The notes below the pieces were generated by a model, which was not told where the DNA came from, ran no database searches, and saw only the letters and a list, made by a program, of their open reading frames with translations. From NCBI RefSeq assembly GCF_900091855.1, contig NZ_FMCH01000388.1, positions 62,001-126,000 on the forward strand: a stretch of DNA of 64,000 nucleotides. Direction: 5' to 3'. Of the stretch, positions 16,177 through 48,483 are shown piece by piece. Made by a program: the position numbers and the translations under genes. Numbering within the stretch: position 1 is the stretch's first letter; each line of letters opens with the position of its first letter. Source of the DNA: Streptomyces sp. DvalAA-14. Lineage in GTDB: Bacteria; Actinomycetota; Actinomycetes; Streptomycetales; Streptomycetaceae.

Positions 16177-16220
16177 GTTCTGACCTGTAGGAATAGTTGC
16201 GGTCCGTGTACGCTGGGACT

Positions 16221-17873
16221 ATGACGGACAAGGTTGCTTCTTCTATCGGCCCTCTTGTCACCGGCTCCGAGATCGCTCGGCTGGCCGGAGTCACTCGGGC
16301 TGCTGTCTCCAACTGGCGTCGGCGCTACGACGACTTCCCCGCGCCGGCGGGAGGAGCCGCCAACAGTCCGCTGTACGCGCTCGCCGAGGTTCAAGCATGG
16401 CTGGACCGGCAGCGCAAAGGCCAGGAGGTATCACTTGAGGTCGAGTTGTGGCAGGCCATGCGGGCTGCTTACGGGGAACAGATGATCGCAGGTCTGGCAG
16501 AGGTGGCCGGGGTGCTGGCCGGTGAGCATGGGTCTGGACTGCCGGATGATGTCGCCGGCCGCGTGCAGGGGCTTGCCCAGACCGAGGCGCCCGTCGACCT
16601 CGTAAATGGTCTGACGGGACGTTTCATGGACTCCGCTCGGCGCGCGGGGTCGGACCAGGTGACTTCCGAGCGCGTGGTGCGTGCTGTGTGCCACTTCGCT
16701 CCCGAGCTGTCGGCCAATGCCACGGTATTTGATCCCGCCTGCGGAATCGGGGTGCTACTCCTGTCTGTGGCCCCCGAGGGGGGGAGTTGCTGGGGCCAGG
16801 ACGTGGATGCTGACAGTGTCCGCTTTGCGCAGCACCGCGCGGGAATCACGGGGCAATCAGGTGTGCGCGTTGCACAAGGTGACTCCCTGCGCGCGGATAA
16901 ATGGCCGGATCTGAAGGCGGATCTAGTCGTCTGCGATCCCCCAGTCGGCCTGACCGAGTGGGGACGAGAGGAGCTGTTGCTCGACTCTCGTTGGGAATTC
17001 GGTGCCCCGTCCAAGGCCGAAGGAGAACTCGCCTGGCTCCAACATGCGTACGCGCACACCGAGCCCGGCGGTCAGGTCCTCATGGTCATGCCGGCGTCAG
17101 TTGCTTACCGCAAGGCAGGCCGACGCATTCGAGCAGAACTCGTGCGCCGGGGCATCGTTCGCCAAGTGGTCGCTCTGCCACCAGGGACAGCGACATCTCA
17201 TGCGCTGCCAGTCCACCTGTGGTGCCTGCGGCGGCCCGAGAATAGCGGGGGTACGGATACCAACCACGCCGTGCGCATGGTTGACCTGACCGGCAACAGC
17301 CCGGACGGGAGCCTGGAACCCCGCCCCGATCAGATCGCCGACGTGCCGTTGATCGAGCTCCTGGACGACATCGTTGACCTGACGCCAGGCAGTCATCTCA
17401 GGGCCCGGCACCGTGACTATCCCGGTGAATACGCGGCCCTGCGCAAGGAACTGGGGGACGAGCTCCGCCGACTTGCCGCCATTCTGCCCGAGCTCTCGCC
17501 GGCCAGCGGATCGGGGTCATTGGACGGCGCCACTACCAGCGTTGCGGATCTCGCCCGCGCGGGATTTGTCGAGTACGAGGGCTCCGAACCTGTCTCGGCC
17601 AGCGAGCAACTTGACACGGACTTTTTGCAAGGATTTCTCCGTAGCTCGGCCAACACTCGCCGGTCCACAAGTGCCAGTGGGACCTATCGATTTGACGGTA
17701 AGGGTGCACGGATTCCCCGTATGGGCATCGACGAGCAGCGTCGGTACGGCTCGGTCTTCCGAGCTCTCTCTGCGTTTGAGGAAGGAACGCGCAAGGTCGA
17801 CGAACTGAGTCGGCAACTCGCCGAAGTCGCCCGTGACGGCCTCGCCTCGGGCAGCCTGGCGCCCGAGGAATGA
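16221..17873 (+). CDS. N-6 DNA methyltransferase with N-terminal HTH domain
   Basis: A 550-residue protein from the ATG at 16221. Residues about 10-60 form a helix-turn-helix module (VTGSEIARLAGVTRAAVSNW, then LAEVQAWLDRQ). The methyltransferase core follows with motif I VFDPACGIGVLLLSVA and motif IV LVVCDPPVG; DPPV is a DPPY/NPPY variant. No endonuclease or helicase domain is present, so it looks like an orphan HsdM-type adenine methyltransferase. TACGCT lies six bases upstream of the ATG, which suggests a leaderless transcript; a TTG eight codons earlier is the alternative start. It converges on the UvrD-helicase gene across a strong hairpin. It may protect host DNA from a nearby nuclease, but no partner is proven. 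Confidence 0.85.
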   Translation: MTDKVASSIGPLVTGSEIARLAGVTRAAVSNWRRRYDDFPAPAGGAANSPLYALAEVQAWLDRQRKGQEVSLEVELWQAMRAAYGEQMIAGLAEVAGVLAGEHGSGLPDDVAGRVQGLAQTEAPVDLVNGLTGRFMDSARRAGSDQVTSERVVRAVCHFAPELSANATVFDPACGIGVLLLSVAPEGGSCWGQDVDADSVRFAQHRAGITGQSGVRVAQGDSLRADKWPDLKADLVVCDPPVGLTEWGREELLLDSRWEFGAPSKAEGELAWLQHAYAHTEPGGQVLMVMPASVAYRKAGRRIRAELVRRGIVRQVVALPPGTATSHALPVHLWCLRRPENSGGTDTNHAVRMVDLTGNSPDGSLEPRPDQIADVPLIELLDDIVDLTPGSHLRARHRDYPGEYAALRKELGDELRRLAAILPELSPASGSGSLDGATTSVADLARAGFVEYEGSEPVSASEQLDTDFLQGFLRSSANTRRSTSASGTYRFDGKGARIPRMGIDEQRRYGSVFRALSAFEEGTRKVDELSRQLAEVARDGLASGSLAPEE

Positions 17874-17929: not shown

Positions 17930-20065
17930 TCAGGCAGGGCGTGGTAGGAACGGGCTCGGGGTTCCGCTCCACGTCACACTTAGCGCTTCGCGAGCGCGAG
18001 TGCATGCGACGAAGAGCAGGCAGCGCTCACGGAGCAGGTCGGCGTCATGCTGCACCGGTTCCGCCTCGCGTGGGGTGATCCCACGGGTGAACGGGACTGA
18101 GCCCTCGTCGACGCTGAGGACGGACACAGCACGGAACTCCAGCCCTTTCATCGCGTGCATCGTTGCCAGACGGACTCCCTCGGTACTCTGGGTGATCTGC
18201 CCCTTGACCCTTAGCACCGGGATGCCGGCGGCCTTCAACTTCTCCTCGGCCGCGTCCAGAGAGAGGTTGAAGCGCGCACACACGCCGATCTCGCGCGGTG
18301 CGAGGCCCTCGGCGAGCAACGCCCGGATTCGGTCTACCAGGGATTCGATCTCCTCCTGCCGGGTCGCGTATCCCTGCGCCTGGGGGCTTCGCCCGTGCAG
18401 CAGGGAGCGGTAGCCCGCCAGCGAGTCCGTTCCCTCGCCGTCGAGTGCGTCGACGGTGACGGGGGCGAGGAGTCGCGCCGACCAGGCGAGGATCTCCTCG
18501 GTCGAGCGGTAGTTGACACGCAGCCGGGAGCTGCGGCCGGCAGTGGAGATGCCCAGGGAGCCGAGCGAGACTCGGGAGTCATAGATTCGCTGGTGCGGAT
18601 CGCCGGTGACGAACAGGTCGTCCTGGCCGGGGGACACGGCGGCGCGCAGCACACGCCACTGGGCGGGGTGCAGGTCCTGGGCCTCGTCGACAACAACATG
18701 GCTGTACGGAGCCTGCTCATCGATGAGGAGTTCCGCCGCATGAGCGCAGATCCGGAGGTGTGTCGTCTCCCCGCGGTCGCGCAGGTACTGTTCGAACCGC
18801 TCTACGCCGTTCCACACTTCTTGGCGGCGTGTGGGACCAAGGCCGGTTCCACGGCCTCGGCGGCTTGCGCCGAGGTACGTATCGAGGCTGCGGAGGTTCT
18901 GGCCGAGAATGATGTGCCGGTACTCCTGGGCCAGGAACCGGGCGGTGAAGGGCAGATCGAGCTGCTTGACGGCCTTCTCCCACAGCTGCAGCTGTTCCCG
19001 GTCCCCGACAGGTCTGGGCGTAGTCGCCGACTTCGCGCGCACGATGCCGTTCGCATAGGCGTCAACCGTCGTTACGTCGACCCGGGCCAGCAACCTCTCG
19101 TCCTGTTCGAGGAGCAGGCCGAGCAGGTCACGCAGTCCTGCGGCCAGCGCGTTCGTGTACGTAGTGAGCAGGATGCGGCCGTCCTCGGAACGGCCGAGCA
19201 GGTGCTTGATCCGATGCAGGGCAGCGACGGTCTTGCCTGTCCCGGGCCCGCCGGTGACCTGGACAGGACCCCCGTACGAGGTGCGGTAGGCGACGCGCCG
19301 TTGGGAGGGGTGAAGGAAAACCCGCCAAGCATCGAATGGCTTCTCCAGGATGTCCTCCAGCTCCTGCGGCCCGGTGACCAGGCGGATGCGTGCCGGAGTG
19401 TTGGCGATCACTGTGGCCAGATCCTCGACCGGTTCGGCGGGCGCATCGGCAGGCCGACGGACGGCCACCACATCCCGGTAGACCTCTTCCGGGCTGAAAC
19501 CCTCGGCCAGGTACTGCAGCACCTCCAGCTGATCTTCCGGCAGGAGTAGGGAGAACGCCTCCAGTTGGGCCTTGTCCACCAGTGAACGCGCGGCGCGCAG
19601 CACTTGGGCATCGACGCCGAGCTCGCGCAGCGTGCCGTCGGAGATGCCCGCGAAGAGCAGCCGTGGAGCCGTGCGTGCGGCCGTCTCGTACAACGGCGTC
19701 AGCTCGTCCAGGGCGACGGCGTTGCGTACCTCCAGGGCGCGGGTTGCGGAGTTCGCGCTGTACAGACGTTTCGCCGCCCACGTATAGGCGTCGTCGTGCG
19801 GCAGGACATTGACCAGGAGGAACGTGTCGCTGCCGTCGTCGGGTGCGAGGACGACGCCCCGCCAGAAGCCGGTGATGCGAATGGTGCGCATGCGCGGGTC
19901 ACGGGCGTTCTCGACGGACTCCAGGTGCAGGCCCTTGTCCGCGTTGAGCTCGGCGACGCTCAGGGCCTGGAATTTCGCCATGGCCTTGTGGACTCCGGCT
20001 CGGATGAGCTTGTCCAGGGTGTCGTAGCCGTCCCAGAAGCTCTGGGCGAAGGCGAGCCGGGGCAT
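17930..20065 (-). CDS. UvrD-type helicase with N-terminal RelE-like domain
   Basis: A 711-residue SF1A-type helicase. Walker A GGPGTGKTVAALHR is near residue 270, Walker B VVVDEAQDLHPAQW near 458, and the C-terminal LATMHAMKGLEFRAV plus VACTRAREALSVTW are typical UvrD/Rep motifs. Residues 1 to about 115 look like a RelE/ParE-type toxin fold: MRTIRITGFWRGVVLAPDDG followed by LLVNVLPHDDAYTWA. The ATG at 20065 was chosen because GGAAGGA precedes it; the upstream part of the open frame lies in mcrC. The gene starts 37 bases after the mcrC stop and is probably co-transcribed with mcrBC. Whether the RelE-like part still cleaves RNA or only binds nucleic acid is unknown; its assignment is by pattern, not search. 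Confidence 0.85.
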   Translation of the reverse strand: MPRLAFAQSFWDGYDTLDKLIRAGVHKAMAKFQALSVAELNADKGLHLESVENARDPRMRTIRITGFWRGVVLAPDDGSDTFLLVNVLPHDDAYTWAAKRLYSANSATRALEVRNAVALDELTPLYETAARTAPRLLFAGISDGTLRELGVDAQVLRAARSLVDKAQLEAFSLLLPEDQLEVLQYLAEGFSPEEVYRDVVAVRRPADAPAEPVEDLATVIANTPARIRLVTGPQELEDILEKPFDAWRVFLHPSQRRVAYRTSYGGPVQVTGGPGTGKTVAALHRIKHLLGRSEDGRILLTTYTNALAAGLRDLLGLLLEQDERLLARVDVTTVDAYANGIVRAKSATTPRPVGDREQLQLWEKAVKQLDLPFTARFLAQEYRHIILGQNLRSLDTYLGASRRGRGTGLGPTRRQEVWNGVERFEQYLRDRGETTHLRICAHAAELLIDEQAPYSHVVVDEAQDLHPAQWRVLRAAVSPGQDDLFVTGDPHQRIYDSRVSLGSLGISTAGRSSRLRVNYRSTEEILAWSARLLAPVTVDALDGEGTDSLAGYRSLLHGRSPQAQGYATRQEEIESLVDRIRALLAEGLAPREIGVCARFNLSLDAAEEKLKAAGIPVLRVKGQITQSTEGVRLATMHAMKGLEFRAVSVLSVDEGSVPFTRGITPREAEPVQHDADLLRERCLLFVACTRAREALSVTWSGTPSPFLPRPA

Positions 20066-20102
20066 GAGGTCCTTCCTTCCCTTCCTGCCTGACGGTGTTT
20101 CA

Positions 20103-21353
20103 TCATCGTGGACGTGGGGTGACTGCGGCCAGTTGTTCGGAGATCTTCCGGAGAGCCGAAAGGAGCTGTTTGGGTTCACGGGAGAGGTCGAGGCTGTGCT
20201 GGTGCAGCCGCACTCCCCATCCGTCCGGCCCTGCCGTCGTTCCGCGCACCTCGTGGAAGCGCTCGGGCGTTCGCCCAGCCGCGTACACCAGGTGTGCCTC
20301 GCGCAGACCGAGCACGGTGGCGTACGCGAGCGCCTGGTACAGGTCGGCGTTGAGGAGTCCGTCGGCCTTCTCGACCTTGTATTTGGCGTCGACGACAGCA
20401 AGCGGAGTGCGGCCGTCGCCTGTGCGGACGACGAGATCGGGGCGCACCCGTACGAGACCTGCGGTGTCGAGGTGGTGGAGGTCCTGGAGATTCGCGGTCA
20501 GGCCGTGTTCCCGAAGGGCCTCACGCAGGGCGACCGTGACGAAGTCCTCGAACAGCTTGTTCATGTCGAGCAGGAAGCCGTCGATGGTGAGTGGTTCGGG
20601 CCCGGTTGGGCGGTGTTCCGGTGAGGTGCCGTGCAGGACCGCCTCGGCGAGCCGCAGCGCGGGCTGATAGCGGGAGTTCAGGCGCGACGGCCGCCACCGT
20701 GGCAACTCCTGCCCCCGCACCAGTGGCAGCGCGTCTGCGAGACGTACCCGCTGATGGGCCAGGCGCCTCCGGACGGGGCCGGGAACCCCCGGCAACCGCA
20801 GCAACCGCTCGACGGCAGCACGCAGGATACGGTTCTCCGCGGTGTCCGCGCTGTACGCGTCGTAGACGATCTCCACGGGCGGTGTTCGGCCGAAGTGCCG
20901 TCGAATCTGTTCGGCCTCGCGCAACCGCCCGCGCACCACCAGTGCGGATTCCTCCACCTCGCGGTAGCCCTGGAGGACCCCCTGCCGGAGCGCGGCGTCG
21001 ATCTGCCGCTCCACAGCGTGCGCGAGTGCGGGGACAACATCGTCGTACGTGCCGATGTCGACGGTGCCCTCTCGGCTGTCGCGCCATGCGCGTGCTGGCG
21101 CGAGGCTGAACCCGAGGAGGAAGAACAGCCGGCTCACGGGGGTCTTGGGCGTGATCCGTACGACCGAGCCGTCCGGTGTGCGTACGGCGCCGACCCAGCT
21201 GCCCGCCCGCAGCAGCCAGTGCCCCTCCCGGCCGGGATCCGGGGTGGCGCTGTGCAGGATCCCGGAGGCGGCGAGGGCCCGCCCGGCCTCGGAGCCGAGC
21301 GGGACAGAGACTGCGGGCCCGTACTCGCGCAGCGTCACTTCCATCACGGTCAC
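20103..21353 (-). CDS. mcrC: McrC nuclease subunit of McrBC
   Basis: A 416-residue McrC protein, partner of the McrB GTPase in cutting modified DNA. The PD-(D/E)xK nuclease site is visible: RPDLVV near residue 304, then VVDAKYK near 317 (D-x-K). The middle part, with SADTAENRILRAAVERLL, matches McrC family architecture. The GTG start overlaps the mcrB stop (GTGA), so the two are translationally coupled; an ATG three codons on (MEVTLREYG) is an alternative. No truncation is seen. Confidence 0.9.
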   Translation of the reverse strand: MTVMEVTLREYGPAVSVPLGSEAGRALAASGILHSATPDPGREGHWLLRAGSWVGAVRTPDGSVVRITPKTPVSRLFFLLGFSLAPARAWRDSREGTVDIGTYDDVVPALAHAVERQIDAALRQGVLQGYREVEESALVVRGRLREAEQIRRHFGRTPPVEIVYDAYSADTAENRILRAAVERLLRLPGVPGPVRRRLAHQRVRLADALPLVRGQELPRWRPSRLNSRYQPALRLAEAVLHGTSPEHRPTGPEPLTIDGFLLDMNKLFEDFVTVALREALREHGLTANLQDLHHLDTAGLVRVRPDLVVRTGDGRTPLAVVDAKYKVEKADGLLNADLYQALAYATVLGLREAHLVYAAGRTPERFHEVRGTTAGPDGWGVRLHQHSLDLSREPKQLLSALRKISEQLAAVTPRPR

Positions 21354-23176
21354 GGGCGCTGTTCGCGCAATGAGTCGAGACCGTAGCGGGCGGTGACGTC
21401 GAGGCCCTCGCCGTAGTGGTGCTCCTCGAGCAGCGGGAGAATCTTGGTTCGCCAGGTCCGTTCGAGACCGCCCTCGCGGTACACGCCCGGCTTCATCAAG
21501 TACGACGGACCGATGGCGAAGTCCGCGTCGTCGATGCGGGCATTGAGGGCATCGAGGAGGTTGGCGGGCTCCGGATCCCTGCCTTCGCGCTTCAGCCAGC
21601 GAGCGAGCAGTCCGGCGGTCGGCTCGGTGCGGGGGGACAGCTCAACGAACGCGAACCGGCGCCGCATCGCCGCGTCGACCAGGGCGATCGATCGGTCGGC
21701 GGTGTTCATCGTCCCGATCACGAACAGATTCGGCGGAAGCGCGAAGTCGTCCCCGGAATAGGTGAGGCGGACGGACCTCGTGCGGTACTCCAGTAGGAAG
21801 TACAGCTCACCGAAGACCTTGGCCAGATTGGCGCGGTTGATCTCGTCGATGATCAGGAAGTGCGGGAGGTGCCGGTTGCCCTCGAGTGAGGCGAGATCGG
21901 CGAGTTCCCGGAGCGGGCCCGCGGTCAGCCGGAAGGCAACCTCCCTCGTCTCGGAATCTTCCGCGGGCCGGAACCCTTCGAAGAAGTCCTCATAGGCGTA
22001 GGAGGGATGGAACTGCACGATCTTGACCTGTTCCGGGCCGCCGCCGAAGTACTCGGCCAGCTTCATCGCCAGATACGTCTTGCCTGTGCCCGGCGGCCCA
22101 TAGAACACCAACTGACGTTCATCGAGGAGCAGTTCACGCATCTCGTCGAGCCAGGACCGGTCGTGGACGAGGAGGTCTGCGGCAAGCGCTTCGGTGGTGT
22201 CCGGCAGTGACAGCTCCCTCTGTGTCGGCCGTTCGACAGCGGGGTGCTCACCGGTGCCATCGGCAGCCGCCGGGACCGCACGCGCTGAGAGCTCGGTGAG
22301 CGCGCCCAGTGCGTCCAGAACGCCGGTCAGGTCGACGACATCATGCTGAACGGACAGCTTCTGCTGTACTTCCTCCGGCAGTTCCTCATACGCATGGCTC
22401 TGCGGCAGCCACGCGACAGTCCGTCGCAGATTCGACAGCCCGCCCGGCGACGAGGTCTGGAGGGCCTCCCCGGTGATTAGCCCTACGTGCAACCGGCCGT
22501 CGCCGATGGCGGCCACCGTGTCGTCCACACGCATCTGCGTCAGGAATGCGTGCAGATCGTCGACGAGGCCCTGCTTCTGGTTGTACGAGGCCGCGCCCTC
22601 GTATCCCTCCTCCACGTAGCGGCGCAGGGCGCTCTTCGTCGGGTCGTTCTCCTCCAGGGGCGGCAGGTGTACGCCGGCAAGCGAGACGAACCCCTCTTTC
22701 AGCCACAGTTGCCGCACCAGGTTGTGCCCCGAGACGTTGGAGCCGCGCACCAGCCACGCCTTGCGTGGGGCACGCCAGCCGGTGGACAGATAGTCCGCGA
22801 GCGGGTGGTTCTCGGCGGTGCGCCAGGACTCGGGGCCGGACGCGTCGTAGCCATACACCAGCGCGGCGGCAGCCGAGGAGGAGTTGCAAATGATGTCCCG
22901 GGTCGCCACCCAACGCGGCGGAGCCTGCGGGTTGTCAGGATCGGCGCGGGTGTCGGCGAGCGCGTTGCTCGCCCGCAGATCCGCGCGGATCCGATGTGCG
23001 TAGTCACCGAGCCCGGGCCACTCGTCGGCGGCCACCGTTGAACCCTCTCGCAGGAGGAACTTGTGCGTGCCGTTGCCGCCGAACTGAGTGAGCAAATATC
23101 CGCGCGCCTCTCCGCCGTTTTTGGGAAGCTTGATGCGGAATTCGGGGGCGCCGGGGAGGCGATCGGGGTGCGGCAT
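21350..23176 (-). CDS. mcrB: McrB GTPase (AAA+) subunit of McrBC
   Basis: A 608-residue protein. The C-terminal AAA+ domain has Walker A VFYGPPGTGKTYLA near residues 357-366, Walker B FLIIDEINRANLAKVFGELY, and the McrB-specific MNTADRSI near residue 489, which distinguishes GTP-using McrB from ordinary AAA ATPases. The N-terminal 300 residues would recognise modified DNA; I cannot tell which modification. The ATG at 23176 was chosen for its GGAAGG site, discarding 31 upstream codons that run into the promoter region. The gene is divergent from the sigma-factor gene across a 172-base region with palindromes. Confidence 0.9.
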   Translation of the reverse strand: MPHPDRLPGAPEFRIKLPKNGGEARGYLLTQFGGNGTHKFLLREGSTVAADEWPGLGDYAHRIRADLRASNALADTRADPDNPQAPPRWVATRDIICNSSSAAAALVYGYDASGPESWRTAENHPLADYLSTGWRAPRKAWLVRGSNVSGHNLVRQLWLKEGFVSLAGVHLPPLEENDPTKSALRRYVEEGYEGAASYNQKQGLVDDLHAFLTQMRVDDTVAAIGDGRLHVGLITGEALQTSSPGGLSNLRRTVAWLPQSHAYEELPEEVQQKLSVQHDVVDLTGVLDALGALTELSARAVPAAADGTGEHPAVERPTQRELSLPDTTEALAADLLVHDRSWLDEMRELLLDERQLVFYGPPGTGKTYLAMKLAEYFGGGPEQVKIVQFHPSYAYEDFFEGFRPAEDSETREVAFRLTAGPLRELADLASLEGNRHLPHFLIIDEINRANLAKVFGELYFLLEYRTRSVRLTYSGDDFALPPNLFVIGTMNTADRSIALVDAAMRRRFAFVELSPRTEPTAGLLARWLKREGRDPEPANLLDALNARIDDADFAIGPSYLMKPGVYREGGLERTWRTKILPLLEEHHYGEGLDVTARYGLDSLREQRP

Positions 23177-23228
23177 GGGTGACCTTCCGTCTAGGTCGAA
23201 GCCTGCGCGAACGCCAGCCACCTTACCT

Positions 23229-23242
23229 GTTGACACTGTCAA
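23229..23242. promoter_or_regulatory. Palindromic operator, mcrB-proximal copy
   Basis: GTTGACACTGTCAA contains the perfect palindrome TTGACA-C-TGTCAA. The same 14-mer recurs at 48464-48477, upstream of the kinase-helicase operon. It is 53 bases before the mcrB start, in the region shared with the sigma-factor gene. This is probably a binding site for a dimeric repressor. Confidence 0.65.
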
Positions 23243-23254
23243 ACTACTAATTCT

Positions 23255-23285
23255 GTTGACAGTGTTCACGGGTCGGTCTTAGTGT
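23255..23285 (+). promoter_or_regulatory. Second operator copy overlapping a putative promoter for the sigma-factor operon
   Basis: GTTGACAGTGTTCACGG matches the core of the 48 kb palindrome at 14 of 17 positions. Its TTGACA (23256-23261) is also a consensus -35 box, followed after 18 bases by TAGTGT (23280-23285), a Streptomyces-like -10. If so, a protein bound here would block transcription of the sigma-drmAB operon. Confidence 0.5.
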
Positions 23286-23348
23286 GTAGCTACGCCGGGC
23301 TGGCTCGTTCGAGCAGAATCGGCGCTCGGTCGCTGGAGTGGGGGCGCT

Positions 23349-24905
23349 ATGGGTGGGGACTCGATGGCCGGGGTCGAACGGGTCACGGTCGAGGCGGAGT
23401 TGCCGTTCGTCATCGAGAGGCTGAAGCGGTGCGCGTCTCGTACGGGCGTTGTCAGTCAGCAAGCTTTCGCTCTGGAGGCGGGTCGACTCGGGCTGAGAAC
23501 CGCGGAGCAGCAGCGAAGGCTTCGCAATGGGCTAGCTGTTTTCGGCATTCACGTGAAGCCTTCTCCCCGGGGAGGCTCGAGCCATCGCGCCGGGCCCGTC
23601 TCCGACCTTGAGGTGCAGGCTGCGACGCCGTTAACGAAGACGCCCGCTCCACCGGTTGCCGCCCCTGAACCAGGGCTCGGTGCAACCGAGGCGGCCGGAC
23701 GCTTGGCCCAGGCCCGTCGCATGTTGGCCCGCTACGCCGATGGAGACGGCGCCGTCAGCAAGCTCGCCCACGACGGTGTGGCACGGCTCCACGGCCTCAA
23801 CCCTACCGAAGTGCGCGAGCTGACCGCTGACTTCCGGATCAGCCGACCCGGAACGCCCAGCGTGCCCGCTGAACCGCCGGAGCGTCGTGAGGGCCGCCCT
23901 GTCGGGTCTGTACTCGCGCCGACCTCCAGGGTCGCACGTGTGCGGGCGCCGATCGTCAGGAAGGGCGCCCGAGTTGCCTCCTACGCCGTGGACGCGCGCC
24001 CGGCCGATGCCGTTCGCGTTGCCCGAGTCGTTGTGGAAGAAGACCGGTGGCGGCGTGACCCGGCCAAGGTGGTGCTCAAGGCGGAAGAGGAAGTCGGCCT
24101 GGCCGTTCTCCTCCGTGGCGGTACGCACCTGCTCGGTCGTGATGTTCCGGTGGACGAGATTGCGGCGCTGCCCCGCGACGGTGAGCGATGGCGCGCCTAC
24201 GAGTGCCTTGTCCTGCACAACCAGCGGCTCGTGTGGAAGATCGCGCAGGGCTATCAGGGACACGGACTGGACGTCGAAGACCTCGTCCAGCACGGAAGTA
24301 TCGGACTGCTGCGCGCGGTTCGCAAGTTCGACGCTACTCAGGGGTACAAGTTCTCGACCTACGCAACCTGGTGGATCAAGCAGTCAATGACGCGGGCCAT
24401 CGCCGACGAAGGCACCCTGATCCGATTGCCTGCGCACCTCCACGAAAAGGTCACCAAGGTCGCCGCGGCCGAGCGGAAGCTGCTGGGTGAAGGGCGTGCC
24501 AGGTCCGTTGAGAACGTGGCCTACGTCACCGGCCTCACCTTCACGGAAGTGGAAAAGGTGCGCAGGATCAGCCGGCCCACGGATTCCCTGGATCGGATCA
24601 TCGGCGACGACGCCGCCCTCGGTGACCTGGTTATCGGGCCGAGCCGACTGCCCGGCCCTCCCACCGTACTGATCCGCAAGGAGTTTCACGCGCGCTTGCG
24701 GCACGTCCTGGAGCACCTCTCGGAGCGTGAGCGGCACATCCTCATCAGGCGCACCGGCCTTGACGGTGACGAGCCGGACACGCTGGAGGACATCGGTGTC
24801 GTCTTCGGCGTCACCCGTGAGCGCATCCGGCAGATCGAGTCGAAGGCCAAGCCGAAGTTGCGCGACGAGCTGGCCCGTCACGGGCTCATTCCGTCCTTCC
24901 GCTGA
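23349..24905 (+). CDS. Sigma-70 family RNA polymerase sigma factor heading a DISARM-like operon
   Basis: A 518-residue protein. Region 2 is clear: LDVEDLVQHGSIGLLRAVRK, then YKFSTYATWWIKQSMTRAIA. Region 4, with an HTH, ends the protein: LEDIGVVFGVTRERIRQIES. The first 75 residues resemble sigma region 1.1 (VIERLKRCASRTGVVSQQAF and GLAVFGIHV), and residues 75-230 form a Pro/Arg-rich linker unlike ordinary housekeeping sigma factors. It is followed after 78 bases by drmA on the same strand. Sigma factors are rare in defence operons, so it may switch on the operon or act as a sensor. The start could be the second Met five codons later. It shares its promoter region with mcrB. Confidence 0.88.
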   Translation: MGGDSMAGVERVTVEAELPFVIERLKRCASRTGVVSQQAFALEAGRLGLRTAEQQRRLRNGLAVFGIHVKPSPRGGSSHRAGPVSDLEVQAATPLTKTPAPPVAAPEPGLGATEAAGRLAQARRMLARYADGDGAVSKLAHDGVARLHGLNPTEVRELTADFRISRPGTPSVPAEPPERREGRPVGSVLAPTSRVARVRAPIVRKGARVASYAVDARPADAVRVARVVVEEDRWRRDPAKVVLKAEEEVGLAVLLRGGTHLLGRDVPVDEIAALPRDGERWRAYECLVLHNQRLVWKIAQGYQGHGLDVEDLVQHGSIGLLRAVRKFDATQGYKFSTYATWWIKQSMTRAIADEGTLIRLPAHLHEKVTKVAAAERKLLGEGRARSVENVAYVTGLTFTEVEKVRRISRPTDSLDRIIGDDAALGDLVIGPSRLPGPPTVLIRKEFHARLRHVLEHLSERERHILIRRTGLDGDEPDTLEDIGVVFGVTRERIRQIESKAKPKLRDELARHGLIPSFR

Positions 24906-24983: not shown

Positions 24984-27900
24984 ATGGACCCGCGCCAAGA
25001 GCTGGTCGATTACCTCTCCCGGCACCTCGTCGGGCCCGCCCGTGGGGATGACGAGGTGCTCGACGCGCCGCCGGACCAGCAGTACCTGATGGGCACGCTC
25101 TATCCGCAACAGGCAGATCTCCTGCGGCAGCTCGCCCGTGCGGCCGACGACCCCGACGCACCCGGCGCCGAGCAGGACGCCCCCGACGTGGATCCGGCCT
25201 CCGACCCCGTGCCCGAGACCAACAGCTGGCTTCCCGCTTCCCTCGGCGTGAGTTTCTACACCGACGCTGGACGCGTCGAGGTGACATGCACCGGTGCCCG
25301 CTACGAGACGTTGAGGAGCGAACCCGGCCGCGGGCGGCGCTGGCGGCGTGTCCCTCACATGCCCGAGACGCACACGATCGGCACCGACCGGGAGACCGTG
25401 CCCGTCCTCGACGGCCGCGCGGAGATCCGGGTGCGCTGCCGCCCTTACGGCAACGGCACGCTGGTCACGGTGGCCCTGGTCAACGCCGCTCGCCATGACG
25501 GTTCCGACGGTAAGGCGCCGAGCTGGGACGACATGCTGTTCCAGTGCGGACTCACGGTCCGCCCGGTCGGCGGTGCCGTGCTTCCCTATCCCAGCGTCCG
25601 ACTCGCCAGTCGTGACCCCGAGGAGCGTGAACTGCGCCTGCAGTACCGGCACGTCGTCACCCACGCTGTCGGGCACGGCTGCGCCGTCCGAGAGGAGCCC
25701 ACCGAGGGAAGCGGCGTCGTACTCCTTGCCAGCGAAGCCCTGCCGCGTGCCGAAGTGCCCGCCATCCGGGCCGGCGGCCCGCTCGACGCCCCCGCGCTCA
25801 CCATCTCGCACCTGGCCGACCCGGCCGTCAGCGGCGACCAACTCCGCGAGGAGCTGGCCGATTTCGCCGCGTCGTACCACGCCTGGTACGTGGGCCAGCG
25901 ATCCGTCGAGGTGCCGGCCTGGGGGCAGGAGGCGGCGGAGCGGATCCTCGAGCGCATCCATCAGGCAGTCACCCGCATCGAAGCGGGCGTGCGCACTCTG
26001 TGCGACCCGAACCGCCCCGAACTCCTCGACGCCTTCCGCATCGCCCAGCGGGCCATGCTGCTGCAGATGCGGCATTCGGCCCCGGACCAGGCCGGAGAGC
26101 GACGCCGCCGCTCCGAAGCCGTGGCCACCGACCCGCCGGTGGACCCCAAGGCCACCTGGCGCCCCTTCCAGCTCGCGTTCTTCCTTCTCGCCCTCGACGG
26201 CGTAGCCGAATCCGGCCACCCCGACCGTGAGACCACCGATCTGCTGTGGTTCCCCACCGGTGGAGGCAAGACGGAGGCGTATCTGCTGCTGGCCGCCTTC
26301 GCGATCGCGCTGCGACGGCTCCGCGGCGAAGGTGGCGGCACCGCCGTACTCAGCCGCTACACCCTCAGCCTGCTCACCACCCAGCAGTTCCAGCGCGCCG
26401 CCACCACGATCTGCGCCCTCGAACATCTCCGTCGCAGCGAACCCGGACTCGGTCTCGGCGACGAGCCGATCACCGTCGGCCTGTGGGTCGGGGAGACCAC
26501 CACCCCCAACAAGTTCGAGGCGGCCAAGGACGCTTTCGACCAGCAGCGCGAGGCCACCCACCCCGAGGACGTCTTCATCCTCGACCGCTGCCCCTGGTGC
26601 GGCACCCGCATCCTGCCGCCGAGCCACTCCAGCGTCCGCTCCGACTACGGAGTCCGCGCCGAACCAGACGACTTCGCCTTCTTCTGCCCACGCGACGAGT
26701 GCGCCTTTCACGACCTTCTGCCCGTTGCCGTGGTCGACCAGCACCTCTACCAGCAGCCTCCCACCTTCGTCCTCGGCACCGTCGACAAATTCGCCCGGCT
26801 CGCCTGGGAGCGCGACTCCGGACGCCTCTTCGGGGCCGGCACCGGTAACCCACCCCCGTCCTTGATCATCCAGGACGAGCTGCATCTGCTCACCGGGCCG
26901 CTCGGCACCACGGTCGGTCTCTACGAGGCGGCCATCCTGGAGCTGTGCACCGACCGGAACGGCCGGCGGCCCAAGATCGTCGCCGCCACGGCCACCATCC
27001 GGCGCTCCGCCGAACAGGTACGCGCCCTGCACCACCAGGACGTCCAGCTCTTCCCGCCGTCAGGAGTCGACTCCCGCGACAGCTTTTTCGCCGTCCCCGA
27101 CCACAGCCGCCCGGGCCGCCTCTACCTGGGTGTCATGGCGCAGGGCCACACCGCGGGCCGGGGGGCCGTCGCCACCACGGCGGCCATGCTGCAGGGCGTC
27201 CACCAGCTTCCCGAAGAGCACCGAGACGACTACTGGACGCTCGTCGCCTACCACCACAGCCTGCGCGAACTGGGCCGAACCGTAACCGCGGCCGGCGACG
27301 AAATTCCCGCTCAGCTCCGCGGACTCGACGAGGGGGCCGGCGTCCGCGCGCTCGGCAACGGCGACGTACAGCAACTGACCAGCAATGTGCCGGAGCGTGC
27401 CGAACAGCCCGTCCTGCTCGACCGCCTGGAGAAGCCCTGGACGGACCCCAGGTGCGTCTCGCTCCTGCCGTGCACCAACATGCTCTCCGTTGGTGTCGAC
27501 GTGAAGCGGCTCGCCTACCTACTCATGCAGGGCCAGCCCAAGACCACCGCCGAATACATCCAGGCCACCAGCCGCGTCGGCCGCCATCAGGTGCCGGGAC
27601 TCGTCGTCACCTACTTCAACGCGACTCGGCCGCGTGACAGGTCCCACTACGAGACTTTCCTGGACTATCACCGCGCCCTCTACCGTTACGTCGAACCCGC
27701 CAGCGTCACCCCCTGGTCCCTGCCCGCGCGCCGCCGCGCGCTGCACGCCGCTCTTGTCATCCTGGTCCGCCACCGGCTCGGTCTGGCCGCCGAGAACCAG
27801 GCCGGACGGATCACCCTCCACAGGGACGAGGCCGAGCGGATCGCGGACGCCCTTGCCGAGCGTGCGGCGATCGCCGAGAGCGGCGCCTCGGGAACCGACA

Positions 27901-28136
27901 GCGATGCGGTCCGCGTCGACGTCCGCGCGGAACTGGGCTACCTCCTCGACGACTGGCACCAGCAGGCCAAGGCAGCCGCCGCCGAGGGCAAAGACCTCTA
28001 CTACCGCAGCCAGGGCAAGGGCCAGCACAACCTGCTCAAGACCTTCGAGCAGCGCTATGGCCTGTGGGAAACCCTCAACTCCATGCGCAGTGTGGATCGC
28101 GAATGCCAGATCACCGTGACGGGAGCGGGAAAGTGA
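24984..28136 (+). CDS. drmA: DISARM DrmA-like helicase
   Basis: A 1,050-residue SF2 helicase. Walker A WFPTGGGKTEAYLLLA is near residue 423 and the DEAH-box variant LIIQDELHLLTGPLG near 627. The C-terminal helicase lobe contains SVGVDVKRLAYLLMQGQPK and YIQATSRVGRHQVPG near 835-868. Two cysteine pairs (CPWCGTR near 535, CPRDEC near 567) suggest a zinc site between motifs I and II. The GGGKTEA Walker A, DELH box and following DrmB-type gene together match the DrmA of DISARM, which with DrmB binds invading DNA. AAGGA lies eight bases upstream of the ATG, and the gene overlaps the drmB start (GTGA). It is intact. Confidence 0.87.
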   Translation: MDPRQELVDYLSRHLVGPARGDDEVLDAPPDQQYLMGTLYPQQADLLRQLARAADDPDAPGAEQDAPDVDPASDPVPETNSWLPASLGVSFYTDAGRVEVTCTGARYETLRSEPGRGRRWRRVPHMPETHTIGTDRETVPVLDGRAEIRVRCRPYGNGTLVTVALVNAARHDGSDGKAPSWDDMLFQCGLTVRPVGGAVLPYPSVRLASRDPEERELRLQYRHVVTHAVGHGCAVREEPTEGSGVVLLASEALPRAEVPAIRAGGPLDAPALTISHLADPAVSGDQLREELADFAASYHAWYVGQRSVEVPAWGQEAAERILERIHQAVTRIEAGVRTLCDPNRPELLDAFRIAQRAMLLQMRHSAPDQAGERRRRSEAVATDPPVDPKATWRPFQLAFFLLALDGVAESGHPDRETTDLLWFPTGGGKTEAYLLLAAFAIALRRLRGEGGGTAVLSRYTLSLLTTQQFQRAATTICALEHLRRSEPGLGLGDEPITVGLWVGETTTPNKFEAAKDAFDQQREATHPEDVFILDRCPWCGTRILPPSHSSVRSDYGVRAEPDDFAFFCPRDECAFHDLLPVAVVDQHLYQQPPTFVLGTVDKFARLAWERDSGRLFGAGTGNPPPSLIIQDELHLLTGPLGTTVGLYEAAILELCTDRNGRRPKIVAATATIRRSAEQVRALHHQDVQLFPPSGVDSRDSFFAVPDHSRPGRLYLGVMAQGHTAGRGAVATTAAMLQGVHQLPEEHRDDYWTLVAYHHSLRELGRTVTAAGDEIPAQLRGLDEGAGVRALGNGDVQQLTSNVPERAEQPVLLDRLEKPWTDPRCVSLLPCTNMLSVGVDVKRLAYLLMQGQPKTTAEYIQATSRVGRHQVPGLVVTYFNATRPRDRSHYETFLDYHRALYRYVEPASVTPWSLPARRRALHAALVILVRHRLGLAAENQAGRITLHRDEAERIADALAERAAIAESGASGTDSDAVRVDVRAELGYLLDDWHQQAKAAAAEGKDLYYRSQGKGQHNLLKTFEQRYGLWETLNSMRSVDRECQITVTGAGK

Positions 28137-30017
28137 AGCGCAAACTCCGGGTCCGCCAGGCACAGACGGTGCTGCCGTTCGGCGTCGGCGCCATCCTCGA
28201 TGTCCAGGGGGAGTCCTTCGTCGCCGCCGGCATCGAGTCCTGGCCGCGGCAGAAGACCGCCATCACTTCCGAACGGCTCGCCACTCGGCTCGGCGTCCAG
28301 GGCTTCTTCGCCGCACCCCCTACCCTCAACGACCGCTACGACCAGTCCGACCACCCCGGCGTCCCGTATGTGCGATTTCCCGGCTGGCTGTTCTGCGGCT
28401 CCTGCCGGGCCATGGTCCGCTTTCTGCGCGAGAACGAGAAGCCCGGTGAGCCGCCCGTCTGCACATCCTGCGCTGCCGCACCGCGTCTCACCCCGATGCG
28501 GTTCGTCCGCATCTGTCCGGACGGGCATCTCGACGACGTGGACTGGTGGTACTGGGCCCACTCCCAGCTCCCAGCCGAACTGCGGTCCTCCTGCTCCGAG
28601 TCGAAGGACGCCTGGAAGGCACGCCGTCTCAGTTTCCGCGTGGCCGACCGCGCTTCCGGACTCGAAGCGCTTTCGGTGCGTTGCGGGGCGACCAGGGCGG
28701 ACGGCAAGCCGTGCGCCGCCGAGCGCGACCTGCTCGACATTCTCGGACCCCGGGGCGGACGGTGCTCGGGTGGCAATCCGTGGCAGCGCCGAAAGGAGAA
28801 CGCCACCTGCGGCCAGCAGACACACATTGTGCAGCGCACCGCCGGCAACGTCTACTATCCGGTCGTCTACTCGGCTCTCGACATCCCCCAGTCCCGCCGA
28901 ACCCCCACGCCTGGAGCAGGACGCCGGCGAGGCCGTGCGCGGCCATCCGTACTGGCTGATCCTGCTGGGTGCACTCGGGACGGGTCGAGCCGATGCCTTC
29001 CGCGACATGATCAAGGAAGACACCGGCGCCGCCGACAGCCTCATCGATCAACTCGTCGCTGAAGCCACGGGCGCTCCGGCGACGCCGTCCGGCGGTCGAC
29101 CAGAGGCCGGCGACATCGACCTGAGCCGGGACGAGTGGTGCGCCTTCGATGCTGTCGAACATCCGGAGCCTACGAAGGAGTTCGCGATACGCCGAAGTGG
29201 TCTCGGTCTTGACGGTGAGACGGAGGAGCCCTGGGCCACCCTCGACACGCACATCGATGGCATCGTCCTCGCCGACCGCATCCGCGAGGTGCGGGCGCTG
29301 ACCGGGTTCCGTCGCCACACTCCGGACGGCACCCTTGTTTCCGCCGACACCAGTGGGCGCCTGCGCTGGCTGCCCGCGACGGAGGTCTACGGCGAGGGCA
29401 TCGTCCTCACCCTCGACGAACAACGCCTGATCGCCTGGGAAGGCGACCCTCGCGTTCAGGCGCATGTGCGGGGGGTCCGTACGGACCTCGACGCGTCGTT
29501 CCGGGACGAACAACTCGCCGATACCGTGGGCAGCGAACTCTCACCCCGCTTCTTGCTCCTGCACACTCTCGCCCACCTCCTCATCCGCCAGCTCTCCTTC
29601 GACTCCGGCTACACCACAGCAAGCCTCTGCGAGCGCGTTTACGGCCGCCCCGAGTACGGCCAGCGCGGGCTGCTGATCTACACGGCCGCCGGTGATGCGG
29701 CAGGCACCCTCGGCGGCCTCGTCCGGCAGGGAGAAGCACCGCACTTTGCCGAAACCCTCATCCGGATGCTGGAGGCGGCCGCCTGGTGCTCTGCCGACCC
29801 GCTGTGCGCCGAGCACACCGGACAGGGCTTCGGAAACCTCAACCGCGCCGCCTGCCACGCCTGCGCCCTGCTGCCGGAGACGAGCTGCCAGACTGGCAAC
29901 ACCCTGCTGGATCGCGCCCTGGTCGTCGGCTCCGCGGGCGTTCCCGGCTACTTTGCCGACGTCCTCACCGCGAGCCGCGAATTCGCTGCCGCCACCGTTC
30001 TGGGGTCACAAGAATGA
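28133..30017 (+). pseudogene. drmB: DISARM DrmB-like protein (DUF1998) with apparent frameshift
   Basis: The 5' part reads from a GTG overlapping the drmA stop: VKRKLRVRQAQTVLPFGVGA, then CGSCRAM and CTSCAAAP zinc-type pairs and WWYWAHSQ. This frame loses coding character after YSALDIPQ. The remainder continues one base further on (LEQDAGEAVRGHPYWLILLG) to the stop, with the DUF1998 features LLLHTLAHLLIRQLSFDSGY and a late cysteine cluster (CHACALLPETSC). The shift must lie around 28880-28915, where two runs of five C occur (28885-28889 and 28902-28906); one C too many explains it. Repaired, the protein would be about 627 residues. DrmB partners DrmA. Either the gene is inactivated or the base call is wrong. 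Confidence 0.82.
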
Positions 30018-31125
30018 CCAGGGCGAAATCCCCCGTTCTCCACCCCGACCTCACCTCCGCCCAGCGCGGCTGCCTGGACGCCCTGCCGCTCAAGGGCAAC
30101 CGTGTCGTCAGCGGCTCGCCCGGCAGCGGCAAGAGCTTGCTCGCCGCGCATCGCGCCGTCCATCTCGCCCTCACCGGCCGCCCACCCTGCTGCTTTCGCG
30201 CTCAAACCTCCTGCGCCAACTCCTGGACGACACCCTTCAAGGCATCACGGTCCCGGGCGCACCCGTCGAAGCCGCCACCGTCCACGGCTGGATCCTGCGC
30301 CACTTCGGCCGCGACGCACCGCGCACCACGGATGGCTGGTTCGACTGGACGGCCCTCACCCACCGAGCCGCCGCCACCTTCGGCGAGACCGACGCGTCCG
30401 CACCCCACCTCGTCATCGACGAGGGCCAAGACCTGCCACCGGGCTTCTACCGGCTGGCCCGCCTCGCCGCCGCCTCGGTCACGGTGTTCGCCGACGAGTG
30501 CCAGCGCCTCACCGAGACGAACTCCACCCTGAGCGAGATCACCGACGCCCTCGGCCGCTCCACCGGACGCGTCGAGGTTGCCGGCAATCACCGCAACACC
30601 CGCGAGATCGCCTCCCTCGCGGAGCACTTCCGCACCGGTGGCACCCGCCCGGACATGCCTATCCGCAGCGGCTCCTTGCCCGTCATCCGTCACTACTCCA
30701 GCAACAAGGATCTCGCAGACGGCATCGCCACCATGGCCGCCCGGCACCCGCAGGACCGCATCGGCGTCATCGTCAACGCTTCGCGCACCACGGTCGAGCT
30801 GATGCGACACCTCGAACGGGCCGGCCTTGCCCACGAACCCCAGCTCTACAGCTCGGCGGCGTCGTTCGGCCGCTACCGTGACCTCGACCTCGCCCGCCCC
30901 GGCGTCGTCCTCGTCCACCGCGCCAGCGCCAAGGGCCTCGACTTCGACACCGTCGTCATCCCCGACACCGAGACCGACGCCGCCACCGACCCCACCGAGG
31001 CGTCCCTGCGGATGGCCTACTACGTCATGATCACCCGCGCCCGGCAGCGGCTGGTCCTGGGCTGGCAGGGCAGCCGACTGCCGGGGCACCTGGAGGGGCT
31101 GAGGGGCTGGGTGACGATGCGCTGA
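30014..31125 (+). pseudogene. SF1/UvrD-like ATPase, apparent frameshift near its start
   Basis: The gene starts at an ATG overlapping the drmB stop (ATGA). The first frame gives Walker A VVSGSPGSGKSLLAAHR and ends its coding character at about 30180. A -1 shift then continues LLLSRSNLLRQLLDDTLQG through Walker B LVIDEGQDLPPGFYRLA and the C-terminal HRASAKGLDFDTVVIPDTE to a stop at 31123-31125. One missing base near CGCCCACCCTG (30179-30189) would restore about 370 residues. The motifs are those of a compact UvrD-like helicase or ATPase. It occupies the place where DISARM normally has drmC (phospholipase-D nuclease), and no such domain is seen. The function in this operon is unknown. Confidence 0.78.
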
Positions 31126-34089: not shown

Positions 34090-34794
34090 TTACGGCATTG
34101 AATCCTCCGAGTCAGGACCGAGTTGTGCCTCGTCCTCGTGAGCCCCGCCGGCCCAGCTCGACGGGGGAGGTCCGAAGATGGCGCGTGCGGACCTGATCGT
34201 CAGTCGCCCGACGACATGGTTGCCTCCGGCCCCGAGCGCCGTACCGATACCAAGGGGCACCTGTTTGCCCAGCACGAGGACCCCTTGCTTGGTCCCGTAC
34301 TTGGTGACGAACCGATGACCCAGCACATCGTTGACCCGGTTGATCGCGGTCATCGGGATCGCACTAACGATGCGCCGTGCCCAGTAGGGGCCAGTACGCC
34401 CGACGGCTTTGTCCAGAGCCTTCACCGCTCCGTCGCCGAGGAGGACGGTCAAGACCAGGAGCTTGCGTCGCTCGAAGTCCTCAGGATGCAGGTCGTGGAC
34501 CTCAGCCAGCGACAGCGTGTACAGCACTGACGCTTCGGTGAAGACCATGACATCAGCCAGCGCCGTCGGTATCCCGGCACCGGGCACGATCCCTGCCATG
34601 CCCGATGCTCCTCCGGACGCGGTGACGCTGGCAAGGAAGTAACGATCTAACCGACGGATCAGCTCCTGTGGAGTGTCGCTGGGGTGAACTCGCCGAAGGC
34701 GCTCGAAATGCTTCCTCGCCAGCGGCTGCTGGGCGACCAGCGCCTTGTCGAGAACCCGTTGGACCAGGCTCTTGGCGTCATCGACCTTGCTCAT
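34090..34794 (-). CDS. EcsC-like protein, copy 2, last gene of the kinase-helicase operon
   Basis: A 234-residue protein. It contains GMAGIVPGAGIPTALADVMV, then LLGDGAVKALDK, GHRFVTKYGTKQGVLVLGK and a Gly-rich LGIGTALGAGGNHVVGRL segment. This order (small hydrophobic helix, acidic helix, Phe-Val-x-Lys-Tyr-Gly, Gly-rich tail) fits EcsC. Its ATG lies 17 bases inside the end of the methyltransferase gene, with GAAAGGA upstream, so it belongs to that operon. The likely role is membrane association, perhaps as an effector. It is a divergent paralogue of the gene at 31363-32031, matching it in layout more than in sequence. Confidence 0.72.
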   Translation of the reverse strand: MSKVDDAKSLVQRVLDKALVAQQPLARKHFERLRRVHPSDTPQELIRRLDRYFLASVTASGGASGMAGIVPGAGIPTALADVMVFTEASVLYTLSLAEVHDLHPEDFERRKLLVLTVLLGDGAVKALDKAVGRTGPYWARRIVSAIPMTAINRVNDVLGHRFVTKYGTKQGVLVLGKQVPLGIGTALGAGGNHVVGRLTIRSARAIFGPPPSSWAGGAHEDEAQLGPDSEDSMP

Positions 34795-41973: not shown

Positions 41974-42014
41974 GAAGTGTCTCAGTTCCTTGAGGTCGGG
42001 AGCCGGTGATGCGA

Positions 42015-48458: not shown

Positions 48459-48483
48459 TCTCCGTTGACACTGTCAACGGAGA
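48459..48483. promoter_or_regulatory. 25-base perfect palindrome upstream of the kinase-helicase operon
   Basis: The core TTGACA-C-TGTCAA (48465-48477) is flanked by TCTCCG and CGGAGA, giving 12-base arms around one central base. It lies 93 bases upstream of the kinase start. GTTGACACTGTCAA is shared exactly with 23229-23242. Perfect symmetry and an odd centre suit a dimeric DNA-binding protein. It is not followed by a clear terminator context, so I read it as an operator. Confidence 0.72.

What the first reader, a model, noticed from the sequence alone, without database searches (positions are those of the whole stretch)
23349..24905. A sigma factor as first gene of a DISARM-like operon
A complete sigma-70 (regions 2 and 4, with a region 1.1-like N-terminus and unusual linker) directly precedes drmA by 78 bases. 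Sigma factors are not known components of DISARM. It could drive self-amplifying expression of the operon, or be an antiphage decoy that recognises phage-altered polymerase.
Basis: partly seen in the sequence, partly recalled or inferred. Interest (0 to 1): 0.68.

Follow-up and report, generated by a model that had tools for sequence, protein, structure and literature searches.

The report
Sigma factor inside a DISARM-like module
In Streptomyces and relatives, one branch of a phage-defence helicase operon always travels with its own transcription sigma factor, and in many strains the operon shares a promoter motif with two other restriction operons nearby.

Summary
The sigma gene (23349-24905) is real and intact, with sigma-70 regions 2, 3 and 4, and lies 78 bp before drmA. 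It is not a one-off: in all 25 distinct Streptomycetaceae loci found with this sigma family, the same branch of drmA, drmB and an SF1 helicase are present. In 150 family genomes, the 16 with the sigma are exactly the 16 with this drmA branch. The 24 sigmas placed in a tree group together, the form A members are under purifying selection, and most keep housekeeping-type promoter-reading residues. In one subgroup (4 loci) the sigma is fused to a ~700-aa region of unknown fold. The nearest named relative is MzaA of the MZA system, which it does not qualify as. A dyad (TTGACNNNGTCAA) or imperfect copies of it mark the sigma, mcrBC and ARMADA-like promoters. The dyad tracks an HTH-bearing N6-methyltransferase gene, not the sigma, so a methyltransferase repressor is the likelier binder. 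What the sigma does is unproven: a dedicated factor for its own operon is most likely (0.4); a subunit tying DrmAB to RNA polymerase is the bold rival (0.27).

The parts
23349..24905 (+). sigma-70 family factor (518 aa): two small N-terminal helical domains, variable linker, regions 1.2-4
23256..23285 (+). conserved sigma promoter: -35 TTGACA (in an imperfect copy of the dyad), 18 bp, -10 TAGTGT
   Evidence: same layout in 18 of 19 loci of forms A, B1 and P (17 with 18 bp, 1 with 17 bp, L007 none); the generic scan did not flag it
23229..23243 (.). full dyad TTGAC-N3-GTCAA between mcrB and sigma (operator candidate), 4 bp before the mcrB -10 TAAGGT
   Evidence: mcrB-side dyad in 16 of 16 form A loci
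24984..28136 (+). drmA-like YprA/DISARM helicase (1050 aa)
28142..30017 (+). drmB-like gene; reading frame broken near 28.89-28.91 kb relative to relatives (start approximate)
30014..31125 (+). small SF1 (UvrD/GajB-like) helicase; frame broken near 30.20-30.22 kb
21350..23176 (-). mcrB-like GTPase (first gene of the divergent mcrB-mcrC-uvrD operon)
20103..21353 (-). mcrC
   Evidence: PF10117, 4.1e-52
17930..20101 (-). UvrD-like helicase (start approximate)
16197..17873 (+). N6-adenine methyltransferase with a weak N-terminal HTH; candidate dyad-binding regulator
34778..39025 (-). PglX/DrmMI-like methyltransferase of the ARMADA-like operon
39025..42018 (-). SNF2/RapA-type helicase (DrmD/DpdE-like)
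42015..48366 (-). protein kinase + YprA-type helicase (+MZB), one ~2100-2200 aa open frame in relatives; frame broken near 43.97-44.00 kb here
48464..48478 (.). second full dyad, inside TCTCCGTTGACAGTGTCAACGGAGA, upstream of the kinase-helicase operon

Best explanation
The gene is an invariant component of a module, sigma-drmA-drmB-helicase. It most likely encodes an RNA-polymerase-binding sigma factor that serves the module's own operon. The promoter in front of sigma (TTGAC, 18 bp, TANNNT) is one that the sigma's own reading residues should fit, so the product would raise transcription of sigma, drmA, drmB and helicase (positive feedback), possibly keeping them transcribed when a phage disables the housekeeping sigma. 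In forms A, B1 and P the promoter overlaps a perfect or imperfect copy of a dyad that also marks the mcrBC and ARMADA-like operons. That dyad is probably an operator bound by the HTH-bearing N6-methyltransferase, as in M.SsoII/M.Ecl18kI. Shown: gene, association, grouping in a tree, purifying selection in form A, conserved promoter and dyad. Inferred: RNAP binding, autoactivation, identity of the dyad binder, link to infection.
For: 25 of 25 loci of this sigma family have drmA, drmB and helicase. In 150 family genomes 16 have the sigma (E<=1e-56) and 48 have drmA (E<=1e-40); the 16 drmA copies at >=54% identity are in exactly those 16 genomes, on the same contigs. The 24 sigmas in the tree lie on one side of a 99/95 branch. 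Core dN/dS is 0.15-0.26 in eight form A pairs, against 0.15-0.23 for drmA in seven usable pairs. RER(I/V)RQ of region 4.2 is kept in 23 of 23 rows and YATWWI(K/R)Q of region 2.3-2.4 in 20 of 23. The promoter has TTGAC-17/18-TANNNT in 18 of 19 loci of forms A, B1 and P. Full dyads lie at the mcrB/sigma and kinase-helicase promoters and, as TTGACNNNGTMAAC, nowhere else in the 7.94 Mb genome.
Against: The mcrB and kinase-helicase promoters share no -35 with the sigma promoter, so sigma is not shown to drive them. Forms B2 and C (6 loci) show no dyad and no TTGAC-18-TANNNT; B2 has only a TTGAC with a 20-bp spacer on the opposite strand. If an operator already controls the operon, a dedicated sigma seems redundant. 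In G023 the sigma is truncated (about residue 412) while the neighbouring genes are intact. Both B2 sigmas and L102 depart in region 2.4. Housekeeping-like specificity is odd for a one-operon regulator. Fusion to a large extra region (form C) hints at more than transcription.
Confidence: 0.4

Rival explanations
1. The sigma is a working subunit of the defence machine: it carries DrmA/DrmB/helicase (or a fused region) to RNA polymerase or to promoter bubbles on incoming DNA, where sigma region 2 holds single-stranded DNA that the helicase can load on.
For: The sigma tracks drmA-drmB-helicase strictly, whatever the orientation and whatever else is in the locus. It is fused to a ~700-aa region in 4 of 4 form C loci (PADLOC candidate family PDC-M33A in L104, the one tested), to an HA domain in G432, and has long C-terminal extensions in G443 and on the S. 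fungicidicus plasmid. MzaA in the MZA system is another defence sigma. In forms A and B1 the sigma operon is among the dyad-marked operons rather than their evident controller.
Against: No physical interaction is known. The form C region has no Pfam or PDB match beyond a small HTH, so its role is open; extensions could equally be sensors that control a transcription factor. The promoter-reading residues are mostly kept, as a normal sigma would need.
Confidence: 0.27
2. RNAP sentinel or decoy: the sigma senses phage takeover of RNA polymerase (altered core, anti-sigma) and thereby triggers the system.
For: Complete sigma regions. The region 2.2 motif QEG of three sigmas of the same genome is QHG, QNG or QWG in 23 of 23 family rows, a place I recall as a core-binding contact, so its affinity for core may differ.
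Against: No direct evidence; no phage partner examined.
Confidence: 0.12
3. Master regulator of the whole island: sigma itself recognises the dyad and drives the sigma, mcrBC and ARMADA-like operons.
For: The dyad contains the TTGAC half that region 4.2 should read, and a copy of it is at -35 of the sigma promoter. Among window ORFs of 60 aa or more outside the core genes, none had a homologue (blastp 1e-6) in more than 6 of 10 comparison loci.
Against: The dyad fronts the kinase-helicase gene in four islands with no intact sigma (G485, G502, G522, G473) and the N6-methyltransferase gene in G402 and G485. B2 and C have sigma but no dyad and no N6-methyltransferase hit at 1e-60 in their genomes. 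The dyad centre lies at about -30, -23 and -55 in the three promoters (my arithmetic), which suits a separate dimeric regulator.
Confidence: 0.08
4. Passenger: a duplicated housekeeping-type sigma that merely hitch-hikes in the operon.
For: G023 has lost its C-terminal part with neighbouring genes intact.
Against: Kept with drmA in 25 of 25 loci across strongly diverged forms (drmA down to 54% identity), purifying selection equal to drmA, kept in a divergent position in B2 and C.
Confidence: 0.04

Closest known systems
DISARM (DrmA, DrmB)
   Same: DrmA and DrmB homologues adjacent and in order; a PglX/DrmMI-type methyltransferase and an SNF2 (DrmD-like) helicase in the same island
   Different: DrmA below the NCBIfam cut-off; no PLD-type DrmC seen among the neighbours scanned, an SF1 helicase stands in its place; a sigma factor heads the operon; methyltransferase and SNF2 lie in a separate operon
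MzaA, sigma factor of the MZA system (NF041931)
   Same: sigma-70 factor encoded in a defence operon; the best NCBIfam match of the sigma core; PMC9523054 (section 11 read) calls mzaA a sigma factor
   Different: 238 bits against a cut-off of 800; only the core (282-507) aligns, not the N-terminus
ARMADA Type I (PMC12458937; abstract, section 5, figure legends and found passages read)
   Same: window 34778-48366 has the order YprA-type helicase, RapA/BrxHII-like helicase, PglX-like methyltransferase
   Different: a protein kinase domain is fused to the helicase; no ARMADA profile was at hand
McrBC associated with a DISARM-like system (PMC11090510; found passages read)
   Same: the association of McrBC operons with a DISARM-like system is reported there
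   Different: no sigma factor of this kind is mentioned in the passages or the Figure 2 abbreviation list I saw (their one sigma passage concerns sigma54/RtcR); supplements not read
M.SsoII / M.Ecl18kI autoregulating methyltransferases (PMC3695355; abstract and passages read)
   Same: a methyltransferase with an N-terminal HTH and a 15-bp inverted repeat in the promoter region of its own system's genes
   Different: those are cytosine methyltransferases of small Type II systems; binding by the N6-methyltransferase here is untested

Membership tests
sigma-70 (group 1/2) factor | regions 2, 3 and 4 present and above cut-off | tested here: met
   r2 75.1/24, r3 25.9/25.3, r4 50.9/24.1 bits
sigma-70 (group 1/2) factor | promoter-reading residues of regions 2.4 and 4.2 | tested here: met
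   window protein: YATWWIKQ and TRERIRQ as in own sigmas. Family: 20 of 23 and 23 of 23 rows. Roles of the residues are recalled
sigma-70 group 1 | region 1.1 | tested here: not met
   no Pfam hit, no PDB sequence or fold match
sigma-70 (group 1/2) factor | binds core RNAP and starts transcription | not testable with these tools
   needs biochemistry
MzaA (MZA system) | NF041931 at or above 800 bits | tested here: not met
   238.1 bits
DISARM | DrmA at NCBIfam cut-off | tested here: not met
   864.7 (window) and 867.2 (G466) against 950
DISARM | DrmB family | tested here: met
   254.8 (broken window frame) and 398.3 (relative G466) against 240
DISARM | PLD-type DrmC beside drmAB | tested here: not met
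   third gene is an SF1 helicase; no PLD in the neighbours scanned. Not every ORF was scanned
DISARM class I | methyltransferase and DrmD in the system | tested here: inconclusive
   DrmMI-like and DrmD/DpdE-like genes lie in a second operon; NCBIfam cut-offs not reached
DISARM | protects against phage | not testable with these tools
   needs infection assays
ARMADA Type I (34778-48366) | gene order YprA-type helicase, BrxHII-like, PglX-like | tested here: met
   against the order given in PMC12458937; by domain resemblance, no ARMADA profile was available
M.SsoII-like regulating methyltransferase (16197-17873) | N-terminal HTH | tested here: inconclusive
   HTH_23 7.1e-4, below cut-off
M.SsoII-like regulating methyltransferase (16197-17873) | inverted repeat in promoters of the system | tested here: met
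   in forms A and B1 not before the methyltransferase gene itself
M.SsoII-like regulating methyltransferase (16197-17873) | binds the repeat and controls transcription | not testable with these tools
   needs footprinting

The most novel reading that the evidence does not exclude
A sigma factor is a working part of an antiphage machine: it delivers the DrmA-DrmB-helicase complex (in form C, a fused ~700-aa region of unknown fold) to RNA polymerase at promoters on incoming DNA, so that transcription start itself is the recognition event.
Probability: 0.25. Interest if true: 0.87.

Novelty: new variant of a known kind. Interest (0 to 1): 0.62.

Why it matters
Sigma factors are the cell's promoter readers, and no DISARM component of this kind turned up in the literature listings I could see. 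A strictly conserved sigma in one branch of DISARM-like systems, and another in MZA, makes it directly testable whether antiphage systems use RNA polymerase recruitment for control or for target recognition. The shared dyad also suggests that three restriction systems in one island may be wired to one methyltransferase, a concrete way in which defence islands could act as a unit.

Tried and rejected
Region 1.1 or HARE-type N-terminus: no support. HTH1 against HTH2 as a repeat: hhalign P 0.0045 but probability 3%, so not claimed.

The ~700-aa region fused to the sigma in form C looked to me like an HTH plus a GHKL-type ATPase. Pfam and PDB give no ATPase match; an HTH is above cut-off only in L104 (34.2 against 23), weak in L058 and L106, not seen in L105. 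I therefore drop the ATPase label, and for that reason lowered the subunit model from 0.30 to 0.27 and the novel case from 0.27 to 0.25.

The idea that sigma binds the dyad and is master regulator was my first reading; searches turned it round (dyad without intact sigma, sigma without dyad).

Distant sigma hits L011-L021: only the sigma core, none of the window genes beside them; 7 of these 11 served as tree outgroup. The plasmid search gave 248 records, 1 of them near full length (L107); the rest were not examined. In one search the G499 drmA pair was out of frame and is not used. In one search L100 and L125 gave no row (L100 was added); G023, truncated, is in neither. The first helicase query was out of frame and was replaced by relatives' frames. 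The full-length AF2 model is poor (pLDDT 55) and I drew nothing from its core.

Threshold caveat: sigma searches used E<=1e-56 to exclude housekeeping sigmas (own hits about 2e-51); form C lies not far inside it (4e-59 to 3e-61), so more diverged relatives may be missed. For the phylum set the 21 other drmA loci (L059-L079) were checked directly with phmmer at 1e-5: 0 of 21 had a sigma. In the family set the neighbourhoods of the 32 other drmA genomes were not fetched as such. I fetched only those methyltransferase loci without an intact sigma that had a dyad on the same contig: 7 of 13 rows at >=54% identity, the stop-containing G510 row included. In two of these seven (G499 second copy, G470) the dyad lies 3-4 kb from the methyltransferase and before no gene of the set, and a third dyad of G485 (L130:5067) likewise.

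Full report
What is there. The ORF at 23349-24905 (+) encodes 518 aa. Pfam finds sigma-70 regions 2, 3 and 4 above cut-off. The best NCBIfam model is NF041931, MzaA, the sigma factor of the MZA defence system, at 238 bits against a cut-off of 800; the RpoD C-terminal model scores 218. PDB relatives are SigA and HrdB. drmA begins 78 bp later; a generic scan of 23100-25100 found no terminator and no consensus promoter. Downstream follow a DrmB-family gene and a small SF1 helicase; divergently lie mcrB, mcrC and a UvrD-like helicase, then an N6-methyltransferase. At 34778-48366 a second operon encodes a kinase-YprA-type helicase, an SNF2 helicase and a PglX-like methyltransferase, the order given for ARMADA Type I in PMC12458937.

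Conservation. A genome scan returned 21 loci; the 10 with full-length relatives (64-76% identity) all keep drmA, drmB and helicase, and all 10 also mcrB and the N6-methyltransferase, mcrC and uvrD. The other 11 share only the sigma core. In 396 phylum genomes the sigma (E<=1e-56) was in 4 and drmA (E<=1e-40) in 24; all 4 sigmas lie close to drmA. In 150 family genomes the sigma was in 16 and drmA in 48; the 16 drmA copies with at least 54% identity were in exactly the 16 sigma genomes, on the same contigs. A plasmid of S. fungicidicus carries the same four genes with a 1273-aa sigma. Counting each locus once gives 25, and sigma, drmA, drmB and helicase are found in 25 of 25 (sigma truncated in G023, drmB broken in the window, helicase broken in the window, L003 and L099): form A 16 (sigma>drmA, divergent mcrB), B1 2 (sigma>drmA, divergent kinase-helicase), P 1 (plasmid), B2 2 (sigma divergent from drmA), C 4 (sigma fused to a ~700-aa region, divergent, with another coding stretch, a NERD-helicase gene in L058, between it and drmA). 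The fused region of form C matches PADLOC candidate family PDC-M33A in L104, the one tested, and shows an HTH in L104, weakly in L058 and L106, not in L105; no other Pfam or PDB match of note (PDB was asked with L104 only).

Family and selection. A tree of the sigma cores puts the 24 rows of forms A, B, C and P on one side of a branch with support 99/95, against three sigmas of the window's genome and seven proteobacterial ones; the outgroup is small. Between the window and eight form A relatives the core dN/dS is 0.15-0.26, the N-terminal domains 0.15-0.46 and the linkers 0.59-1.10; drmA is 0.15-0.23 in seven usable pairs. Of 23 family rows shown, RER(I/V)RQ of region 4.2 is kept in 23 and YATWWI(K/R)Q in 20 (not in L102 and the two B2 rows); the QEG of region 2.2 in three own sigmas is changed to QHG, QNG or QWG in 23. 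That these residues read promoters and bind core is recalled, not tested.

Promoter and dyad. The sigma promoter reads TTGAC, 18 bp, TANNNT in 17 of 19 loci of forms A, B1 and P, with 17 bp in one and no match in L007. Its -35 lies in a copy of a dyad: 14 of 19 fit TTGACNNNRTMAAC, one of them (L102) as a full dyad; the window, L002, L007, L095 and L100 are less exact. A full dyad TTGAC-N3-GTCAA lies 4 bp before a TA...T hexamer on the mcrB side in 16 of 16 form A loci. In the 7.94 Mb genome TTGACNNNGTMAAC occurs only at 23229 and at 48464, upstream of the kinase-helicase gene. The number is not remarkable: base composition predicts 0.6 per strand for the GTCAAC version, about 1.7 for the pattern on both strands (my arithmetic). 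The placement is. With one mismatch the window has 7 matches of TTGACNNNRTMAAC against 0.95 in shuffles. A full dyad fronts the kinase-helicase gene in the window, G466, G499, G503, G403, G023 and G432 and, by coordinates, in G506; it was not found there in G409 or, as a full dyad, in G443. It is absent from B2 and C (0 of 6) and from 21 drmA loci without sigma. In 150 genomes, 92 have at least one match, mostly 0-3 per strand; the reversed control is of the same order, with 29-50 per strand in three genomes.

Who binds the dyad. Sigma is present where the dyad is absent (B2, C), and those six genomes have no N6-methyltransferase hit at 1e-60, while all 10 form A and B1 genomes of that set do. 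Of 13 further methyltransferase rows at 54% identity or more with no intact sigma beside them, 7 have a dyad within 45 kb on the same contig. It stands directly before the methyltransferase gene in G402 and G485, and 62 bp before its annotated start on the plasmid; it stands before the kinase-helicase gene in G485, G502, G522 and G473. In G470 and the second G499 copy it stands before no gene of the set, and in forms A and B1 it is not before the methyltransferase itself. The methyltransferase has a weak N-terminal HTH match. M.SsoII and M.Ecl18kI are methyltransferases that bind a 15-bp inverted repeat through such a region and regulate their own systems (PMC3695355, abstract and passages). 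So I read the dyad as a methyltransferase-bound operator and the sigma operon as one of its targets. This is inference.

Mechanism. I commit to the sigma as a dedicated initiation factor for its own operon (0.4). The subunit model (0.27) is not far behind: the sigma follows drmA-drmB-helicase strictly, carries extra regions in forms C, B1 and P, and is not the evident controller of the neighbouring operons. Against function in every strain: in G023 the sigma is truncated near residue 412 while the neighbouring genes are intact. In the window itself the reverse holds: sigma and drmA are intact but drmB, helicase and kinase-helicase each show one frame break; assembly error is not excluded.

Literature. 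Searches for sigma factor with DISARM/drmA, MzaA, MORC with restriction-modification, CoCoNuT/McrBC with DISARM and sigma factor with anti-phage terms listed no title or abstract start that describes this sigma. Most listed papers were not opened. Opened for passages: PMC9142583, PMC11090510, which reports McrBC with a DISARM-like system, PMC12458937, PMC12839542, PMC12707154, PMC3695355, and PMC9523054, whose section 11 calls mzaA a sigma factor. The original DISARM and MZA papers were not held and supplements could not be read, so 'not in print' is limited to this.

Noticed in passing
28890-28906, 30196-30217 and 43973-44002: Three frame breaks (drmB, SF1 helicase, kinase-helicase) in the window copy relative to relatives; sigma, drmA, mcrB, mcrC, uvrD, methyltransferase and SNF2 genes are intact. 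Helicase frame breaks also in L003 and L099.
   Followed up: partly
42015-48366: A protein kinase domain fused to a YprA/DruE-like helicase heads an ARMADA-like operon; in relatives it is one open frame of about 2100-2200 codons.
   Followed up: partly
4659-11871 and 12680-15988: DUF2397, DUF2398 and SbcC-type genes (Wadjet-like set, name recalled) and a Type ISP restriction-modification gene next door.
   Followed up: no
L136:675-2168 (G473): An ORF with sigma N-terminal similarity and a drmB C-terminus, opposite the dyad before the kinase-helicase gene: looks like a remnant of the sigma-drmAB module.
   Followed up: no
L063 (G000:C195): The window's genome holds a second drmA-drmB pair (drmA 41% identity) with no sigma within the 20 kb examined.
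   Followed up: partly
L058:8262-9893: In form C a NERD-nuclease/helicase gene (named by Pfam in L058) lies between the sigma fusion and drmA.
   Followed up: partly
L102:8852-10771: The sigma of G432 has a C-terminal helicase-associated (HA, PF03457) domain, 2.2e-8.
   Followed up: no
L056:10183-11514 (G023): Sigma truncated near residue 412 in a one-contig genome while the neighbouring defence genes are intact.
   Followed up: partly
L107:19063-19819: On the S. fungicidicus plasmid short remnants of the kinase-helicase and PglX-like genes lie beside the sigma operon, as if the ARMADA-like operon had been deleted.
   Followed up: no
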